A stretch of DNA of 64,000 nt from an uncultured Pseudomonadales bacterium (GTDB lineage Bacteria > Pseudomonadota > Gammaproteobacteria > Pseudomonadales > Azotimanducaceae), in the NCBI GenBank assembly GCA_958296195.1, contig OY282455.1:2046001-2110000 (forward strand). Reading direction: 5' to 3'. A program made the translations under genes and the position numbers. Positions 35,974 through 45,510 of the stretch are shown here, piece after piece (position 1 is the stretch's first letter; each line of letters begins with the position of its first letter). Under the pieces are notes generated by a model, which did not search any database, was not told the DNA's origin, and saw nothing but the letters and a program-made list of their open reading frames with translations.

Positions 35974-36297
35974 ATTCAGAAGATTTTCACCGTGCTGCCT
36001 TGCGGCAGCCTCGTTTGGCCGGTGGCGGCTTGTGGTCGCTGCCCGCAGCACAGTCCGATCCTTAACAATTCAAAGACATGTAGCCGCATTGTTATTCAAT
36101 GCAATAACAACGCGGGAAGCCGTTCGCCTTTGCCGGCGGACGGCATGTATGCGTCTTGGTGCGACGTGCGAATTTCCGTTTTTTGACTAAGAACGGGCAG
36201 TGCGTTGCGCCGGCAAAATGCGTTACCAAAGTCCGGCGTGGCCAGCCCTTGAGCGAGTGGTTGGTCGAGAAATGCGTTGGATTATATGGTCAAGCAT
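35974..36297 (+). other. Spacer between tRNA-Ala and 23S
   Basis: 324 bases without a gene. The stretch GATCCTTAACAA at 36057-36068 resembles a boxA, as is usual ahead of 23S. The rest should form the 23S processing stem but shows no other named element. Confidence 0.5.
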
Positions 36298-39237
<2,940 letters not shown>

Positions 39238-39352
39238 ATAATCGAACGCATTCAGGTTCGGGCAAGGTCACGCAACTTGCAAAGACGCATCGATCCCGCG
39301 TTGTTGGCTGCATGTCTTCTGAATTTCGCTCGCCCTTGGCGAGCGCCAAGTC

Positions 39353-39471
39353 TTCCTGACGATACTAGCGCGTTGGAACCACCTGATCCCATCCCGAACT
39401 CAGCAGTGAAACGGCGCAGCGCCGATGGTAGTGTGGGGTCTCCCCATGTGAGAGTAGGTCGTCGTCAGGAT
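39353..39471 (+). rRNA. 5S ribosomal RNA
   Basis: About 119 bases. The terminal stem TCCTGACGA/TCGTCAGGA closes the molecule, and the internal CCGAACTCAG.AGTGAAAC and GCCGATGGTAGTGTGGGGTC stretches are diagnostic. Confidence 0.97.
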
Positions 39472-39480
39472 TTTTACCCG

Positions 39481-39507
39481 AAGCCCCGCCGCTGGCGGGG
39501 CTTTTTT
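39481..39507 (+). terminator. Intrinsic terminator of the rRNA operon
   Basis: AAGCCCCGCC/GGCGGGGCTT stem with a 3-base loop followed by a T run, 9 bases after 5S. Confidence 0.92.
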
Positions 39508-39690
39508 GTTTGTGGGTCGCGAGCCCCTTGTGGCGTGGCGTCGATCTTGGTTCCGCCCACTCACCGAAACTGCACACCTGCCCGTCAGCAATCGACTTCT
39601 GTGTCTTTGACCAAGCTCAGGCGAGGGGCTATGGTGCGCTAGTCTCTCAGGCCTGAACAACTGCACCGGCATCCCCTTGGAGGCAGCGCC

Positions 39691-40626
39691 TTGTCTGAAC
39701 AACTGTCCCGCTTGTTGCGCCGAATCGTCCGCGAAGGCGGCATCCCGAAGGACGAATTCGACTTCGGGCAGGCCGCCCCGGAAGAGCTTGGCTTGGCGGT
39801 TAAGGACGGCGCCGTGGGCGTGGCGGGGAATGTTGACCTGCTTGGCGAAAGCGCTATCCGCAACTCCCTGTCTCCCCCCGCGGCCGCTTGGCTGCGGGAT
39901 CTCAAAGTCTTTCTGGCGGTGGACTCCACCAACTCCCGCATGGCGGCGACAGCCCAATCCGCCTCGGTGGATGGCTGCGCCTGGTTGGCGGAACTGCAAA
40001 CCGCCGGCCGCGGCCGGCGCGGTCGCCGCTGGCTAACGCCGTTCGCCCGGAACATTGCGCTCACTCTGGGCTTCTCAGTCAACCAGCCGCCCTCCCAACT
40101 CGGCGGCCTAAGCCTAGCTGTCGGCCTAGCCGTCGCCGGGTTGCTGCAGCGTGAAGGCGTAGGCAACGCTGCAGTCAAGTGGCCGAACGACGTTTACATC
40201 GGCGACGCCAAGGTCTGTGGCGTCCTCATCGAGGTGGTCACCCGCGCCAACGCCTGCGACTGCATCATCGGCATCGGCCTAAACTTGGACTTGCCGGAGA
40301 GCGCCCGCACCGGCATCGACCAAAAAGTCACGGACCTAAAGTCCCAAGGCGTAACCCCCAACCGCAACTTGTTCGCCGCCGCCTTGGTCTCCGCAGTGGT
40401 GGATGCCGCAAACCGCTTCAAGCAAGAAGGCTTCGCCCCAATGCGCCCCGCCTACGACGCCCTGCACCTATGCCACGGCAAGCAGGTGCGCATCATCCAA
40501 GGCAACCAGACCCACACCGGCCAAGTACAGGGCGTCACCGCCACAGGCGCCCTGCGCGTCCGCGGCGACGGCAAAGTCACCGAATTCACCGGCGGCGAAG
40601 TCAGCCTCCGCCCCTGCAACCCATAA
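39691..40626 (+). CDS. birA: Biotin-protein ligase BirA
   Basis: Activates biotin and attaches it to the carboxyl carrier protein of acetyl-CoA carboxylase. 311 residues. The catalytic domain is complete: VDSTNSRM, the biotinyl-AMP loop GRGRRGRRW, KWPNDVYIGDAKVCGVLIE and a C-terminal SH3-like domain. TTG start at 39691, with GGAGG 8-12 bases upstream. The first about 60 residues do not show the winged-helix sequence of Escherichia coli BirA (no SRAAINKHI-like helix), so repression of biotin genes is doubtful. coaX, often next to birA, is not found. Confidence 0.93.
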   Translation: MSEQLSRLLRRIVREGGIPKDEFDFGQAAPEELGLAVKDGAVGVAGNVDLLGESAIRNSLSPPAAAWLRDLKVFLAVDSTNSRMAATAQSASVDGCAWLAELQTAGRGRRGRRWLTPFARNIALTLGFSVNQPPSQLGGLSLAVGLAVAGLLQREGVGNAAVKWPNDVYIGDAKVCGVLIEVVTRANACDCIIGIGLNLDLPESARTGIDQKVTDLKSQGVTPNRNLFAAALVSAVVDAANRFKQEGFAPMRPAYDALHLCHGKQVRIIQGNQTHTGQVQGVTATGALRVRGDGKVTEFTGGEVSLRPCNP

Positions 40627-40763
40627 CTTCCGGAGGCGAATGCCGTGCCAGAGCAAAAAGACTATCCGCACACTTGCCTTGGTCTGCATTCCGATCCCAA
40701 TCGTGTAGCAGCCGACGCGCTTGCTCCGCGTACAACTGCTGACGGTCGCAAGTGCGGAGCAGG
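40627..40763. other. Intergenic stretch after birA
   Basis: No supported gene. The minus strand here has short open frames continuing from the broken PIN gene, but none gives a recognisable motif. It may be decayed sequence at the left border of the accessory island. Confidence 0.3.
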
Positions 40764-40889
40764 CTAGGTGTGCGAGGGGGCGTTGTCGGGGACGGTTCGC
40801 ATACGTCTCCGCGACGATTCGCGCCCATGCGCCATCATCGCGTTCGTGTCCACGAGCACTGGTGACCCGCGGTCGTGCGCATTGCTCAT
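40764..40889 (-). pseudogene. Truncated PIN-domain (VapC-like) toxin gene
   Basis: The ATG at 40889 overlaps the stop of the XRE-ImmA gene (ATGA), the normal coupling of such pairs. The frame begins MSNAHDRGSPVLVDTNAMM, with the strand-1 motif and first catalytic Asp of PIN ribonucleases (LVDTN). After about 22 residues similarity ends, and a stop comes at codon 42, where a PIN protein needs about 130-180 residues. Other frames downstream do not restore it. The toxin is therefore probably inactive. The call rests on one motif plus context. Confidence 0.5.
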
Positions 40890-41989
40890 AGCTCGACCGG
40901 GCACACGACGCCGTGGGCTGTGAACAGTTCCTCCAAATCCTCGATCAAGAGCCCGCACAGCGACGCGGCACGTCGAATCGAGATGTGTCCGCGTTCCAAG
41001 GCGGCGGCCAGCAACTCTGCGAACGGCCTCGAGAACAGCGTAGGCGACTCACGAGGCGGCGCTTCCCGACCGTTATTGTGCAGGGCGCCCTCTGGAATCG
41101 CTCGCGCTCTTGCCTTGGTCAATCGCCGCAGGGCCACCAAGCGCCACCTCAGCGCCGAGGACGTCACCCTCAATTCGTCCGCGACCGCGTTCAGTCGCAT
41201 TGTCAGTTCGTCCATGTCCAGTCGTGCGCAGTCATCGAACTCCCGCAACGCCGACGAGGGCATCAGCATGGCCGCCGCGAAGTTGTTCGCAAGCTGCTCG
41301 ACGCGGTTGCCGCCGAAATCGCTGGCGTCCTCCATGTGCTTGGGGGGCATCGCCTCCCACGTCAGGATGTGGAACAACTCGTGGGCGAGGTCGAAGTGCC
41401 GGCGCCCGGCCACCTCGCCTCGTGCGATTAGAACGGCATCGAGCTCGGGCAGGCGACAGGCAGCCCCCGATATGCCCTCCTGCGCATCGACCATCAGCAC
41501 CAGGATGCCGAGTTCCGCTTCCATTGCGGATGCGAGCCCCAGCGCCGGCACCGGTCCCAGATCCAGCTCCCCCGCGAACCTCTCGCCGGCATCCATCGCG
41601 TCCTCGAACCTCGACGCTTTGGTCAAACCCAGCGCCCTTCGCATCAGCGGTGCTTGCCGCCCGGTCTCGGCCGCCAACGCCCGGTACGCGCCGATCCATC
41701 GTCCTGCAATTTGCTCGTATGCCTGAAGCCGCTCCGGCGTCACGCCACTCTGCCGCCACGAGAACCGGCCCTCGCCATCGAGACGAAACGGGTCGGTGAA
41801 GTAGTCCAGATCGACGTCCAGCTTCTCCACGGCAACGACAAGCTCCGCAGCTGCCAAGCCCCGCACTCCGGTCTCTATCGCGGAGACGGTTTGCCGATCT
41901 TTGAACCCGAAAATGCGTGCAAGCCCGTCCTGCGAGAGGCCCCGCTGCTGCCTCAATGCCTTGATCCGCGCCCCGATCACGTTCGCCAT
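40886..41989 (-). CDS. XRE-family regulator with ImmA/IrrE metallopeptidase domain
   Basis: 367 residues from ATG 41989, which has AGGTGGGG upstream; an ORF start at 42061 adds 24 unlikely residues. The N-terminal XRE helix-turn-helix (RIKALRQQRGLSQDGLARIFG, about 7-27) is followed by a linker and a peptidase M78 (ImmA/IrrE) domain with the zinc motif HELFH. A helical C-terminal region ends at 40886. Proteins of this design act as antitoxins or as regulators of mobile elements, with a toxin gene downstream; here that gene is broken. The molecular target is unknown. Confidence 0.85.
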   Translation of the reverse strand: MANVIGARIKALRQQRGLSQDGLARIFGFKDRQTVSAIETGVRGLAAAELVVAVEKLDVDLDYFTDPFRLDGEGRFSWRQSGVTPERLQAYEQIAGRWIGAYRALAAETGRQAPLMRRALGLTKASRFEDAMDAGERFAGELDLGPVPALGLASAMEAELGILVLMVDAQEGISGAACRLPELDAVLIARGEVAGRRHFDLAHELFHILTWEAMPPKHMEDASDFGGNRVEQLANNFAAAMLMPSSALREFDDCARLDMDELTMRLNAVADELRVTSSALRWRLVALRRLTKARARAIPEGALHNNGREAPPRESPTLFSRPFAELLAAALERGHISIRRAASLCGLLIEDLEELFTAHGVVCPVEL

Positions 41990-42094
41990 TGCCCCACCTG
42001 CCCGACTCTCAATTTGTTTTTCTCCATCTGCAAGAAAATCATGCGATTTGCATTCTGCCATCGGACCGGCGTTGATTCAATAGCAATCCGTTCA

Positions 42095-42303
42095 ACCCCA
42101 CCAAAGGATCGCTTCATGGCTGGAGCCGATGCGCACAAACGCGCCAAGCCCGGCAGGTGGAGAGCGCTGAACCCGGCTCCCGCGCCGTCTGCGTGAACTT
42201 CGCGCTGAAGGTCGGCATGCACACCTCCGCCAAATGGCGGTTGGCCGACTCCAGGTCCGTCGTCCCGGCCAGCGCCAACTCCTTCGGCAGGCGCCGCCTT
42301 GTC
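42095..42303 (-). pseudogene. Transposase relic (C-terminal part, ISNCY/IS1202-like)
   Basis: One minus-strand frame reads PKELALAGTTDLESAN, followed by HLAEVCMPTFSAKFTQ and REPGSAL. This is the pattern of the C-terminal region of IS1202-type transposases (KELRLAGI..AN.FL....YN.RF). A second frame just beyond reads AFVRIGSSHEAIL, as if a frameshift or insertion split the gene. There is no start, no catalytic core and no complete ORF. Family assignment is from memory. Confidence 0.55.
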
Positions 42304-42401
42304 CAACCCGCAACCCCTCTAGAACAGCATGATCCGCTTCCCCTGCGCCGACCTCGCCCTGTCCATCAGCTCCGCTCCGGCAACAAAGACCGGCAAAGGT
42401 A

Positions 42402-42420
42402 AAACCGGGCACTCTATTTG
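42402..42420 (+). repeat. Probable IS end repeat beside the transposase relic
   Basis: A 19-base motif AAACCGGGCACTCTATTTG, identical at 15 of 19 positions to the one at 53220-53238, which also lies beside a relic of the same transposase family. Orientation relative to each relic fits terminal inverted repeats. Confidence 0.5.
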
Positions 42421-42484
42421 TTCTCTACAGTCCGCCGGGGAAAGAGTTGACGCCCGGCGTCTTTTGGGTGATCTTAGCTGGCAA

Positions 42485-42934
42485 ATGTCAATTCCCGAAT
42501 TTGACCAGCGGGGGATGCTGCCTGTTGGAGTACATGAGTGTTCTCCTGCTGAAATGACGGCGCGGTTTGGTTGGAACCCTCGTCGGCAGCGGTTGGCGCA
42601 CTCCTTTGGGGATTTTCTTGACCACGAGATTCGTAAGGCGGAATTCCTGGAGCCGGTATATGTCAACGGCAGCTTTGTCACGGACAAGGACGCACCCGAG
42701 GATGTGGACGTAGTGCTTGACTTGCGGTTGGCGAGCGATGGCAGGAAATGGCGCGGTCTGACCCTGATGCAGAAGGAAAGAGACCGATTCCGGGAGCAAT
42801 ACTACGTTGACTTTTGGGTTAATCTTCCGGGCCGGAACAATTTTGCGGATTTCTTCCAGTATGTGGGAATTAAGTCGGCCAAGTTCAAGGGGTTGGCGCA
42901 TACTGACCGCAAGGGAATACTGAGGGTGACTTGA
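42485..42934 (+). CDS. DUF6932-like nucleotidyltransferase-fold protein
   Basis: 149 residues from ATG 42485. The N-terminal part, MLPVGVHECSPAEMTARFGW, and the core YVNGSFVTDKDAPEDVDVVLDL (about residues 57-78) match what I recall of DUF6932. The GSF...D-x-D pattern is that of the nucleotidyltransferase fold, with two candidate metal-binding aspartates. Function is unknown; related folds occur in MNT antitoxins and in defence systems. The ORF could open at 42329, but upstream codons look random and include the IS end. Its stop overlaps the start of the next gene (TGATG), so the two are translated together. Confidence 0.65.
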   Translation: MSIPEFDQRGMLPVGVHECSPAEMTARFGWNPRRQRLAHSFGDFLDHEIRKAEFLEPVYVNGSFVTDKDAPEDVDVVLDLRLASDGRKWRGLTLMQKERDRFREQYYVDFWVNLPGRNNFADFFQYVGIKSAKFKGLAHTDRKGILRVT

Positions 42935-43902
42935 TGGGCGCTTGGACGGAAACGGTGGAGGCGAAGGCCCGGATCATCCACGGGCAGATCGCGGCAGCTC
43001 GGGTTCTGGCGTTGAAAAACAGTGCTGACCCTGCTGCTGTGGAACGCCCCTATCTAGATTTGCTTAATCAGCTGTATCGCGATGAGTTTCACTTCGCCCA
43101 GCTCGTGGATGACTCTGACTTAGTTGCCCGTTTTGAAGGCCCGGCGTTATCGGAAGGAAGCCCCACTGTGTCGGTCGTCACCACCTTGTGTTCCCAGCTG
43201 CGCAAGCAAATTCAAGGCATCACCAAATCCATTATCGGGCTTGCAACCGACAAGCGCATTAGTTGGCCAAGCAACTTGGTTCCTCAGTTATCCGGTATTA
43301 CTACCGGCAGCTTTGTTGTCGGCATCCGCGTTCCAAGCGCGGACAGTAACTCTAATTCAGGCCAAGTGTCTTTTCCGGACATGTCCGCCCCTGTCGTAGA
43401 TGCGGTTAGGCAGGCAACCAAGAGCATTGCTTCCATAGCACGTTACATAGGCGAAGATGGTGTGGATGACGCCATTGAAAAGAGTTTTCCAGACCCGGCG
43501 ATTCGGGACACAGTGTTGGTTGCAGCCTGCAAGCTGGCCCCTTCGGGACGCGAGGGCATCCACCGCCTGTCCTTCTATGAGCCCGATAGTGTTGGCATGG
43601 AGGCCACACCACTAACGCCACAATCTCTTAGGGTTCTGCGTCAGGTGGTTGAGCACCCCATTAGAGTCAACCGAAGCGGCTCGTTTGAAGGCGTGGTGCG
43701 GGAAATTGATCTTGATGCTCGCCGATTCGAGATTCGTCATGTGGAGGAGTTTGGTGCTATTAGATGTGTTTACGCACCGGAGCTTGACGTCTTAGCTCAT
43801 AAAATGCTGGACGCAAAAGTTTGGGTTGAGGGGCAATACGAAACTAGGGCCGACCAAAAACCTCGGTTAATGCAGGTTACGACCATGAAAGATGCTGGCT
43901 AA
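42934..43902 (+). CDS. Unrecognised protein coupled to the DUF6932-like gene
   Basis: 322 residues; I do not recognise the family. The N-terminal about 110 residues are helical in composition (VEAKARIIHGQIAAARVLAL, LCSQLRKQIQGITKSIIGLA). A central segment has the strand-like ITTGSFVVGIRVPS. The last about 70 residues look like a small beta-barrel (GSFEGVVREIDLDARRFEIRH, then VWVEGQYETRA). There are no transmembrane helices or signal peptide. It starts one base into the stop of the nucleotidyltransferase-like gene, so they probably act together. Base composition is visibly more A-T-rich than the surrounding core genes, suggesting transfer. Confidence 0.6.
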   Translation: MGAWTETVEAKARIIHGQIAAARVLALKNSADPAAVERPYLDLLNQLYRDEFHFAQLVDDSDLVARFEGPALSEGSPTVSVVTTLCSQLRKQIQGITKSIIGLATDKRISWPSNLVPQLSGITTGSFVVGIRVPSADSNSNSGQVSFPDMSAPVVDAVRQATKSIASIARYIGEDGVDDAIEKSFPDPAIRDTVLVAACKLAPSGREGIHRLSFYEPDSVGMEATPLTPQSLRVLRQVVEHPIRVNRSGSFEGVVREIDLDARRFEIRHVEEFGAIRCVYAPELDVLAHKMLDAKVWVEGQYETRADQKPRLMQVTTMKDAG

Positions 43903-43990
43903 GCCCGTGCAGCAAGGAGCCCTGCCGGATTCAACGGCTTGGTAGTCGGCTAGCTGTACTGAGGTTCCCAGCCAATAGGGAGATATTGCC

Positions 43991-44239
43991 ATGAGATATT
44001 ACGCATATGAGAATTGGCGCGCCAATGGACACCGTGTTACGATTCATGTGTCGGAGTGCAGCTTCTGCAATGCCGGTCGGGGAATAGCTGGAGGTACACG
44101 TCCTGACAATGGGCAGTGGCTTGATCTTGGGGAATGCCAAGGAAAAGAAGCAGCGCAAGCGAAAGTGCGTGTTTTGGTCAAACCGGGTGCTTTGAACCAA
44201 AGAGACCCCTTTCGCTCTTGCCAGCATTGTTGTCAATAA
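43991..44239 (+). CDS. Small Cys-rich protein (possible zinc ribbon)
   Basis: 82 residues from ATG 43991, with GGGAG 8-12 bases upstream. Contains YYAYENWRANGHRVTIHVSE, then CSFCNAGRG, and near the end CQHC: two C-x2-C pairs that could bind zinc. The opening resembles small uncharacterised proteins found in accessory regions. The middle (WLDLGECQGKEAAQAKV) looks less conserved. Convergent with the Nmad-like gene, 19 bases away. Confidence 0.5.
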   Translation: MRYYAYENWRANGHRVTIHVSECSFCNAGRGIAGGTRPDNGQWLDLGECQGKEAAQAKVRVLVKPGALNQRDPFRSCQHCCQ

Positions 44240-44258
44240 AGACGTTTTTCGGCTCTCT

Positions 44259-44960
44259 TTAATCGCCATCTCGAGGTTCTCCATGAACACCGGGCAGATG
44301 ACCTGACCTAAGCCACTTCTCCAAATAGTTCACATCGCCCTCTGTTGCGTCTTTCACCCGATAGTCACGCACTGATGCGGCGAGATGCAGCAAGCGGTGC
44401 GGCAGTCTTTCAGGTTTGTCGCCGAAGTACCAAAAAGCATTCTCGTCAAACACAACTACTGGCGCGAATAAATCCTTGTTCGTCCGCTTTTCGTCTGCGT
44501 GGTAGTCATCTAGAAGGCGTTTGACCTGACCATTTGGGTGAACCCTATAGACGGCATCCTTCCTGCCCCGGAATTCTTCTTCGTATGGTCCCCAATCCAA
44601 AACACGCGCAACCCGCCCCGCGTACACAAGCAAGCCCCGGTCATACGGCCGCGGCATGAAGCCGGCAATCCAATCGCCCACTTCGGCTGACCTGCGGATC
44701 CGTGGCTTGCAAGTCGCCAAGGTCATGACGCCGCCCTCCACGCAGGGTGCCATGCCGTTGTCGTCCTTCAGGATGTAGCGGAACAGCCGCATCATGTCCG
44801 CCTCATTTTGTTGATGATCCCCTAAACCCAGACTTGCGTAGGTGTCCGTGGAGCGGTTGTTGGCCGGTATGGGCAGGGAAATCAATCGACCGCCCACGAT
44901 GGGTGACGGTGCGCCCCCCGCTGCGCTGTCGAATCCCTTGCGGCTGACTACGAGTTTCAT
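44259..44960 (-). CDS. Nmad3-start/Nmad2 chimera, nucleotide-modification-associated protein
   Basis: 233 residues from ATG 44960. Residues 1 to about 48 (VVSRKGFDSAAGG, PSPIV, LISLPIP, TYASLGLGD) read like the beginning of an Nmad3 protein, which normally runs on for some 200 residues more. From about residue 56 the sequence changes to an Nmad2-type domain: MMRLFRYILKDDNGMAP, TLATCKPRIRRSAEVGDW, LVYAGRVARVLDW and FWYFGD. An internal ATG pair (44795/44792) with GAGG just upstream could start the Nmad2 part on its own. Nmad domains were predicted by others to act with modified DNA bases. No partner modification enzyme is visible. Family calls are from memory. Confidence 0.6.
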   Translation of the reverse strand: MKLVVSRKGFDSAAGGAPSPIVGGRLISLPIPANNRSTDTYASLGLGDHQQNEADMMRLFRYILKDDNGMAPCVEGGVMTLATCKPRIRRSAEVGDWIAGFMPRPYDRGLLVYAGRVARVLDWGPYEEEFRGRKDAVYRVHPNGQVKRLLDDYHADEKRTNKDLFAPVVVFDENAFWYFGDKPERLPHRLLHLAASVRDYRVKDATEGDVNYLEKWLRSGHLPGVHGEPRDGD

Positions 44961-45003
44961 GCCCCCCACACCGGCCTAGGAAACCCCTTACCCAACCCAA
45001 TAG

Positions 45004-45390
45004 CTAAACCAGCATAAAGGTGAATGTCCCCTTGGCGACGCGATCTTCGCCACAGCGCACGTCCGCTTCCAGATGGGCCACCCGGCCGCCGAGCTTGATG
45101 ATTTGGGCGCTCGCCTCCAGCGTCATGCCGGCCTTGGCCGCCTTGAGGTAGCTGATGTTGGCGTTCAGCGTCACGCCCCGCGCCCCGGCCGAATTCAGGG
45201 CGTAGGCGCAGGCGGTGTCGGCCAAGGCGAACGTCAAGGCGCCGTTTGCGTAGCCCGCCGCGTTCATCATCTTGCCGGCCACCACCGCCCGCAGCAGGGC
45301 GCGGCCTTCCGCCGCCGACACGAACTCCATGCCGTAGTGGTCCAGCATCGCCCGGTCAACCGCCACGGTTTGCAGCACATCCACGCTCAT
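45004..45390 (-). CDS. Hotdog-fold acyl-CoA thioesterase (PaaI-like)
   Basis: 128 residues from ATG 45390, with GGGAG upstream. The hotdog core shows MEFVSAAEGRALLR, the helix NGALTFALADTACAYALNS with the catalytic Asp position, and NISYLKAAKAGMTLEASAQI. This is the PaaI/4-hydroxybenzoyl-CoA type; the substrate is not readable. It starts the core-like sequence after the island. Confidence 0.8.
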   Translation of the reverse strand: MSVDVLQTVAVDRAMLDHYGMEFVSAAEGRALLRAVVAGKMMNAAGYANGALTFALADTACAYALNSAGARGVTLNANISYLKAAKAGMTLEASAQIIKLGGRVAHLEADVRCGEDRVAKGTFTFMLV

Positions 45391-45510
45391 AGGCAACTCC
45401 CTTTCGTTCAGGTGCCCCCATTTTGCCGCCTCATCCCAACCTTGGTCCTTGTTTAAGGGTTTCGCCGGCGCATTGCGGAGCGGTTGTTGATGGTGTTTGG
45501 GCCGGCCAGG

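What the first reader, a model, noticed from the sequence alone, without database searches (positions are those of the whole stretch)
44259..44960. ORF joining the start of an Nmad3-like gene to a whole Nmad2-like domain
The first about 48 residues look like the opening of one nucleotide-modification-associated family (VVSRKGFDSAAGG ... LISLPIP) and the rest like another (TLATCKPRIRRSAEVGDW ... LVYAGRVARVLDW). The join coincides with an internal ATG pair that has its own GAGG. This could be an in-frame deletion between two neighbouring genes or a functional fusion. Such domains were predicted to work on modified bases, yet no modification gene lies nearby.
Basis: partly seen in the sequence, partly recalled or inferred. 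Interest (0 to 1): 0.7.

Follow-up and report, generated by a model that had tools for sequence, protein, structure and literature searches.

The report
Deletion scar joining two neighbouring genes
A bacterium lost most of one gene of a two-gene pair by a deletion, and the leftover first fifth now reads straight into the intact second gene; the join itself is ordinary gene decay, although the gene pair looks like part of a poorly known family of defence-like modules.

Summary
On the minus strand (44960-44262), residues 2-51 match positions 1-51 of 247 of Pfam Nmad3 (E 1.5e-14) and residues 56-230 match nearly all of Nmad2 (E 4.5e-25). Elsewhere they are separate, adjacent, often overlapping genes: 9 of 80 fetched relatives showed both, none in one ORF. 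In Sphingosinicella (L002) a complete Nmad3 overlaps Nmad2 by ATGA. At the window's join another frame reads G-I-I-N-K-M-R-R-T-stop, resembling Nmad3 C-termini (rank 13 of 2222 window peptides), and its TGA overlaps the Nmad2 start as in L002. Best reading: about 560 nt inside Nmad3 were deleted, the remaining tail is out of frame, and the stub reads into an intact Nmad2. Nmad3 is dead: 19 of 35 invariant positions are missing. A functional fusion is unlikely. Similar damage recurs in the family. By-products: Nmad2 pairs either with Nmad3 or with a Thoeris-like TIR protein near base-modification genes, and a C-terminal cysteine tail sits on Nmad2 in most Nmad3 pairs but on the TIR in all 13 confirmed TIR pairs. 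No structure could be predicted.

The parts
44818..44960 (-). Nmad3 stub: start codon and first 47-48 codons of a normally about 240-300 aa Nmad3 protein
   Evidence: Pfam PF18754 positions 1-51 of 247, E 1.5e-14; 73% identical to the L002 Nmad3 N-terminus; 16 of 16 invariant residues of this stretch kept, partly circular because the relatives were fetched with peptides of this stretch
44792..44818 (-). Probable out-of-frame relic of the Nmad3 C-terminus (I-I-N-K-M-R-R-T-stop), TGA at 44794-44792 overlapping the Nmad2 ATG; the deletion junction lies at its upper edge (about 44817-44822)
   Evidence: alternate-frame translation; ranks 13th of 2222 stop-anchored nonamers of the window, itself included, against an Nmad3 C-terminal matrix; same overlap in L002
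44801..44804 (-). GAGG, likely ribosome-binding site of Nmad2
   Evidence: sequence; 5-nt spacer to the ATG at 44795; function inferred
44262..44795 (-). Nmad2 gene, near-complete domain (178 aa; stop 44261-44259), own start at 44795; lacks the C-terminal Cys tail of most Nmad3-paired Nmad2 proteins
   Evidence: Pfam PF18753 positions 1-194 of 200; own tail, comparison
40697..44989 (.). Accessory segment holding HTH-IrrE, DUF6932, two unknown ORFs and the fusion; in congener G001 one 337-aa gene occupies most of the same place between birA and a thioesterase
   Evidence: blastn and ORFs of window against L161; GC 0.51-0.57 for the four genes of 42329-44960 against 0.63-0.66 in flanking genes, HTH-IrrE 0.64

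Best explanation
The ORF is a deletion scar. The ancestor had an overlapping two-gene operon, a complete Nmad3 gene followed by Nmad2 (stop and start sharing ATGA). A deletion of about 560 nt removed Nmad3 codons from about 48 to its last 8. The leftover tail is read in another frame, which happens to be open and continues into Nmad2, so the Nmad3 stub and Nmad2 form one ORF. Nmad3 function is lost. Nmad2 keeps its own start and putative ribosome-binding site and is probably still made as an orphan, perhaps beside some fusion protein. Shown: both domain matches, intact operons elsewhere, absence of the Nmad3 body from the genome. Supported but not proven: the relic frame. Inferred: deletion length and mechanism (slippage or end-joining at a short repeat), expression. 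What the pair did is also inferred: from the company Nmad2 keeps in other genomes, Nmad2 most likely recognises modified bases or nucleotides of invaders, and Nmad3 or a TIR protein is its working partner.
For: Both domains above cut-off. Nine of 80 fetched relatives showed both genes by tblastn, in separate ORFs; L002 and L022 have Nmad3 then Nmad2 with ATGA overlap, and L031 has a complete Nmad3 followed by an overlapping truncated Nmad2. The alternate frame at the join opens within a few bases of the last Nmad3-like residues (a TAG closes it upstream), reads G-I-I-N-K-M-R-R-T-stop against L002 D-I-I-R-V-I-R-T-stop and endings of other relatives such as G-I-I-A-E-I-N-R-S-stop, and ends on the TGA overlapping the Nmad2 ATG. 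It ranks 13th of 2222 window peptides and outscores 10 of 69 true members. The only Nmad3 match in the genome is positions 1-51. 19 of 35 invariant Nmad3 residues are absent. Of 5 genomes in the family with Nmad2 beside Nmad3, 3 are damaged: the window, G571 (mirror-image deletion) and G573 (Nmad3 split over two frames).
Against: The relic match is short: 12 other peptides of the window score higher. No close relative with the intact operon was found: the nearest pair in this order, L002, is 73% (stub) and 48% (Nmad2) identical. The stub keeps the invariant residues of its stretch, as a stub under selection would (but see the circularity noted under parts). A mis-assembly cannot be excluded without reads.
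Confidence: 0.85

Rival explanations
1. Functional fusion: the Nmad3 N-terminal segment acts as a docking or substrate-positioning element for Nmad2 and the 233-aa protein is the selected product.
For: The ORF is open end to end, the stub keeps the 16 invariant residues of its stretch (partly circular), and stub divergence from L002 and L083 shows pN below pS, though that history may predate the join.
Against: 0 of 80 fetched relatives has this join in one ORF. In 206 family genomes a few matches run across residues 50-56; those I looked at are not this fusion: L130 is Nmad2 with unrelated upstream sequence and L121 is an Nmad3 gene, and in G571 and G573 the two domains lie in the opposite order. 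The stretch between the domains looks like out-of-frame Nmad3 tail; Nmad2 has its own start; 50 residues are one fifth of Nmad3.
Confidence: 0.07
2. Assembly or sequencing artefact: an intact Nmad3-Nmad2 operon exists and the deletion is an assembly error.
For: Only one genome of the species is at hand; no reads were available.
Against: Single 4.31-Mb contig; no other piece of Nmad3 found in it; comparable damage in other genomes.
Confidence: 0.05
3. Nmad3 and Nmad2 are distant homologues and the ORF is an internal duplication or recombination between them.
For: In one alignment MAFFT laid the Nmad2 N-terminus over the Nmad3 N-terminus (D..G..P.P....L...P); with another set of rows it did not.
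Against: Profile-profile comparison gives probability 1.7 and E 0.03 on 37 columns; each half hits only its own Pfam family above cut-off.
Confidence: 0.03

Closest known systems
Pfam PF18754 Nmad3 (nucleotide modification associated domain 3)
   Same: first 51 positions
   Different: remaining 196 positions absent
Pfam PF18753 Nmad2
   Same: positions 1-194 of 200 present with its own start
   Different: no C-terminal Cys tail; 55-residue N-terminal addition, mostly from Nmad3
Nmad3-Nmad2 overlapping gene pairs (e.g. L002 Sphingosinicella)
   Same: same order and same ATGA junction
   Different: there both genes are complete and separate
ThsB-like TIR + Nmad2 near MazG_C / uracil-DNA glycosylase / 5hmdU-kinase genes on plasmids (e.g. 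Beijerinckia pBIND01, L139)
   Same: Nmad2 as an adjoining or overlapping partner gene
   Different: partner is a TIR protein; nucleotide-modification genes adjoin, which were not found beside the window gene or the Nmad3 pairs

Membership tests
Nmad3 (PF18754) | match to the N-terminal part of the profile above cut-off | tested here: met
   54.7 bits against 27
Nmad3 (PF18754) | full-length domain with its conserved H-x-D-P, G-D-x-F-x-F-x-G, P-H and G-Q-E-F residues | tested here: not met
   19 of 35 invariant columns of 25 proteins lie in the missing part; profile coverage 51 of 247
Nmad2 (PF18753) | near full-length domain match | tested here: met
   positions 1-194 of 200, 88.8 bits
Nmad2 (PF18753) | action on modified bases or nucleotides | not testable with these tools
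   no assay or structure; the prediction is recalled from the family's name and origin
Nmad3-Nmad2 two-gene module | both genes intact and adjacent | tested here: not met
   Nmad3 truncated
Functional Nmad3-Nmad2 domain fusion | same architecture recurring in other genomes | tested here: not met
   0 of the 80 relatives kept of 103 found
TIR-Nmad2 modification-cluster systems | adjacent ThsB-like TIR and MazG_C/UDG/5hmdU-kinase genes | tested here: not met
   none among ten neighbours at 39.7-49.8 kb

The most novel reading that the evidence does not exclude
Nmad2 is the shared sensing subunit of a two-branch family of anti-invader modules, partnered either by Nmad3 or by a Thoeris-like TIR effector, and each module carries one exposed C-terminal cysteine tail, on the TIR in the TIR branch and on Nmad2 in most of the Nmad3 branch, that serves as a handle (for example a site of covalent attachment or processing). 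The window holds a dismantled Nmad3-branch module that has lost both the partner and the tail.
Probability: 0.25. Interest if true: 0.65.

Novelty: new member of a known kind. Interest (0 to 1): 0.3.

Why it matters
The join itself is ordinary decay and warns against reading it as a Rosetta-stone fusion. The comparison behind it is more useful: it shows Nmad3 and Nmad2 as a recurrent, often overlapping gene pair and Nmad2 as a component that changes partner between Nmad3 and a Thoeris-like TIR. That gives a concrete experimental handle on two families for which my searches of the held library (listings only) showed no functional study.

Tried and rejected
Functional fusion: looked for the same join in relatives; none of 80. 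In one search some matches cross residues 50-56 (L130, L121, L084, and unfetched places in G573, G571, G426). I looked at L130 and L121 and G571, and judged G573 from its profile matches; L084 and G426 were not looked at closely.

Toxin-antitoxin reading (Nmad3 toxic without Nmad2): not favoured, since 27 of the 34 Nmad3-bearing family genomes have no Nmad2 match (one of the 27, G424, has only a scrap), and L031 keeps Nmad3 with a truncated Nmad2.

Nmad2-Nmad3 homology: profile comparison not significant. PDB sequence searches gave nothing meaningful: P0001 alone, best E 0.7 (T4 endonuclease V); profile A3, best E 1.6; profile A2, best E 0.75. NCBIfam and PADLOC no match; PHROGs one weak match, E 0.033. 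Phage records: no match; viral contigs: no stretch matched a pattern.

Structure prediction was asked 22 times and never accepted, so no fold evidence enters this report.

Cys-tail count, limits: dropped before the count were second copies of the same place (L086, L113, L130, L131, L133), L149 (truncated), L150 (own), L151 (weak) and L031 (Nmad2 truncated). The sample is not random: most TIR loci came from a plasmid search with a TIR-type Nmad2 (14 of its 16 records fetched). TIR, MazG_C, UDG and kinase queries came from loci in the table, so L139, L140, L138, L094 and L142 match themselves. L094 was labelled TIR only by its own sequence; with L142, L171 and L172 it has no Pfam match, and L142, L171 and L172 resemble the TIR proteins only weakly. 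Fisher values took 17 TIR pairs, treated related sequences as independent, and used a background (3 of 33) counted by hand; I do not rest on them.

Full report
Observation. The ORF is on the minus strand, ATG 44960 to TAA 44259, 233 residues. Pfam assigns residues 2-51 to Nmad3, profile positions 1-51 of 247, E 1.5e-14, and residues 56-230 to Nmad2, positions 1-194 of 200, E 4.5e-25; each half alone hits only its own family above cut-off. NCBIfam and PADLOC give nothing and PHROGs only E 0.033. The internal ATGATG with GAGG upstream is there.

Separate genes elsewhere. A scan of 84,980 species genomes found 103 related stretches, of which the best 80 were kept. By tblastn at E 0.01 both parts occur in 9 of the 80 loci (L002, L022, L033, L061, L064, L065, L073, L075, L078), each time in different ORFs; none of the 80 has them in one ORF. 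In L002 and L022 Nmad3 precedes Nmad2 with an ATGA overlap; in L065 it precedes with a gap of about 450 nt; in the other six Nmad2 comes first. L031, missed by that tblastn, has a complete Nmad3 followed by an overlapping Nmad2 that stops resembling Nmad2 after about 18 residues.

The scar. At the join the window DNA, read one frame off, gives stop-G-I-I-N-K-M-R-R-T-stop, and this last stop is the TGA that overlaps the Nmad2 ATG. L002 Nmad3 ends D-I-I-R-V-I-R-T-stop at the same overlap, and other relatives have endings like G-I-I-A-E-I-N-R-S-stop (L003, L007). Against a matrix of the last nine residues of 69 Nmad3 proteins (two of them identical) the peptide scores 3.1 and ranks 13th of 2222 stop-anchored nonamers of the window, itself included; the family median is 11.2, and 10 of the 69 true members score lower than the peptide. 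This is supportive, not conclusive. The stop that closes the frame upstream lies within a few bases of the point where Nmad3 similarity in the main frame ends. Taken with the L002 gene length (729 nt with stop), the deletion is about 560 nt and not a multiple of three (my arithmetic). The Nmad3 sequence at the left end (G-L-G-D-H in several relatives) and at the right end (G-I-I) would share a short repeat in this DNA, which fits slippage or end-joining; the ancestral sequence is lost, so this is inference. In L002, L022 and L031 the Nmad2 frame is open for 7, 13 and 15 codons upstream of its ATG, so only deletions ending there in one of three frames would give such an ORF.

Consequence. 16 of the 35 residues invariant in 25 Nmad3 proteins lie in the stub and are kept; 19 lie in the lost part. 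The 25 proteins were fetched with peptides taken largely from the stub, so its 16 of 16 is partly circular. No other Nmad3 piece was found in the genome. Nmad2 keeps its start and domain. Stub against L002 has pN 0.195 and pS 0.675, Nmad2 against L002 pN 0.381 and pS 0.719, nearly saturated; this reflects long purifying history and says nothing about the time since the deletion.

Recurrence of damage. In the window's family, Nmad2 matches in 10 of 206 genomes (9 over cut-off) and Nmad3 in 34 of 206 (33 over cut-off); neither rings in 14 control genomes. In a sample of the class Nmad2 matches in 6 of 369 genomes. Five of the ten family genomes have Nmad2 beside Nmad3 (G000, G559, G563, G571, G573), and three of the five are damaged: the window, G573 (Nmad3 in two overlapping pieces) and G571, where Nmad2 positions 3-95 are followed in another frame by Nmad3 positions 87-247, a mirror-image deletion. 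Further Nmad3 scraps occur in G424 and G426. Of 8 other genomes of the genus only G005 has Nmad3, complete, and no Nmad2.

Setting. A congener, G001, is 92-94% identical over 36260-40696 (with one extra stretch of its own) and 88% over 44990-45409; between these the window has 4.3 kb (HTH-IrrE, DUF6932, two unknown ORFs, the fusion) where G001 has one 337-aa gene. The four genes of 42329-44960 have GC 0.51-0.57 against 0.625 for the window. So the pair probably came in an accessory segment.

What the pair may do. Ten selected neighbours in five of the nine Nmad3-Nmad2 loci were tested: a TOTE primase-helicase and a nucleoid-associated NA37 protein (L075), a NucS-like nuclease (L022), a GmrSD-type and a LOTUS-domain protein (L064), an AAA ATPase of the AAA_15/AAA_21 kind (L073), DUF4365 (L002), and three without a match. 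I read this as hinting at defence islands; other loci were not examined. Of 39 Nmad2 loci tabulated, 13 have Nmad3 nearby and 17 were labelled TIR: in 13 of the 17 the adjoining upstream protein matches ThsB_TIR (PF08937) above cut-off; in 4 (L094, L142, L171, L172) it has no Pfam match, and only the last three resemble the TIR proteins, weakly. Nine have neither. At least one of MazG_C, uracil-DNA glycosylase and 5hmdU kinase was found in 12 of the 13 confirmed TIR loci, 4 of the 4 doubtful ones and 0 of the 13 Nmad3 loci (one query per family, taken from L139 or L140; flanks of the Nmad3 loci from a few hundred bases to about 6 kb). DefensePredictor names an Nmad domain, number not given in what I saw, among predicted and unvalidated defence domains, and its abbreviation stands in the legend of a figure of validated systems (PMC13092281, passages seen). 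Brig1, whose best structural matches are uracil-DNA glycosylases, excises alpha-glucosyl-hmC (PMC11078745, passages seen). The most likely role, an inference, is recognition of modified bases or nucleotides of invaders by Nmad2 with Nmad3 or TIR as partner. The original description of the Nmad domains (Iyer and colleagues, 2013) is recalled, not read.

Cys tail. A cysteine in the last nine residues occurs in 13 of 13 confirmed partner TIR proteins and in 4 of 4 doubtful partners, and in 0 of 17 of their Nmad2 proteins; in Nmad3 pairs in 11 of 13 Nmad2 (10 if L033 is discounted) and 1 of 13 Nmad3; in 6 of 9 other Nmad2. For L169 one search reported the TIR of a second pair; the adjacent TIR also has the tail. 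The window's Nmad2 has none. The sample is biased and its members related, as told under Tried and rejected. I know of no explanation; one listing search with these terms showed no paper on it.

Limits. No structure was obtained. No reads, sister strains or expression data were available. Literature searches for Nmad2 and Nmad3 gave listings without a functional study of either; one search lists one paper that names Nmad5 often (PMC11846954), seen as listing only.

Noticed in passing
L092, L138-L140, L162, L167-L170, L173-L176: Nmad2 follows a ThsB-like TIR gene in 13 of 39 tabulated loci (4 more have a doubtful partner), 12 of the 13 near MazG_C, uracil-DNA glycosylase or 5hmdU-kinase genes; a partner swap with Nmad3.
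   Followed up: partly
C-termini of Nmad2 and partner TIR proteins: A C-terminal Cys tail (e.g. HPC, SKC, SRC, CGGR, CGARG) lies on the TIR in 13 of 13 confirmed TIR pairs and on Nmad2 in 10-11 of 13 Nmad3 pairs; meaning unknown.
   Followed up: partly
L149 1498-2306: Mirror-image deletion in G571: first half of Nmad2 followed out of frame by the last two thirds of Nmad3.
   Followed up: partly
L031 6001-6860: Novosphingobium endophyticum: complete Nmad3 with an overlapping Nmad2 that loses its similarity after about 18 residues.
   Followed up: partly
window 40697-44989; L161 9153-10166: Variable segment between birA and a thioesterase: 4.3 kb of accessory genes, mostly of low GC, in the window, one 337-aa gene in congener G001.
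   Followed up: partly
window 43991-44239 (+): 82-aa Cys-rich ORF ending in S-C-Q-H-C-C-Q, convergent with Nmad2, no Pfam match.
   Followed up: no
L121, L122, L123, L127 (genus g52): Nmad3 genes in frames open for 474-502 codons; the L121 frame continues roughly 200 codons past Nmad3.
   Followed up: no
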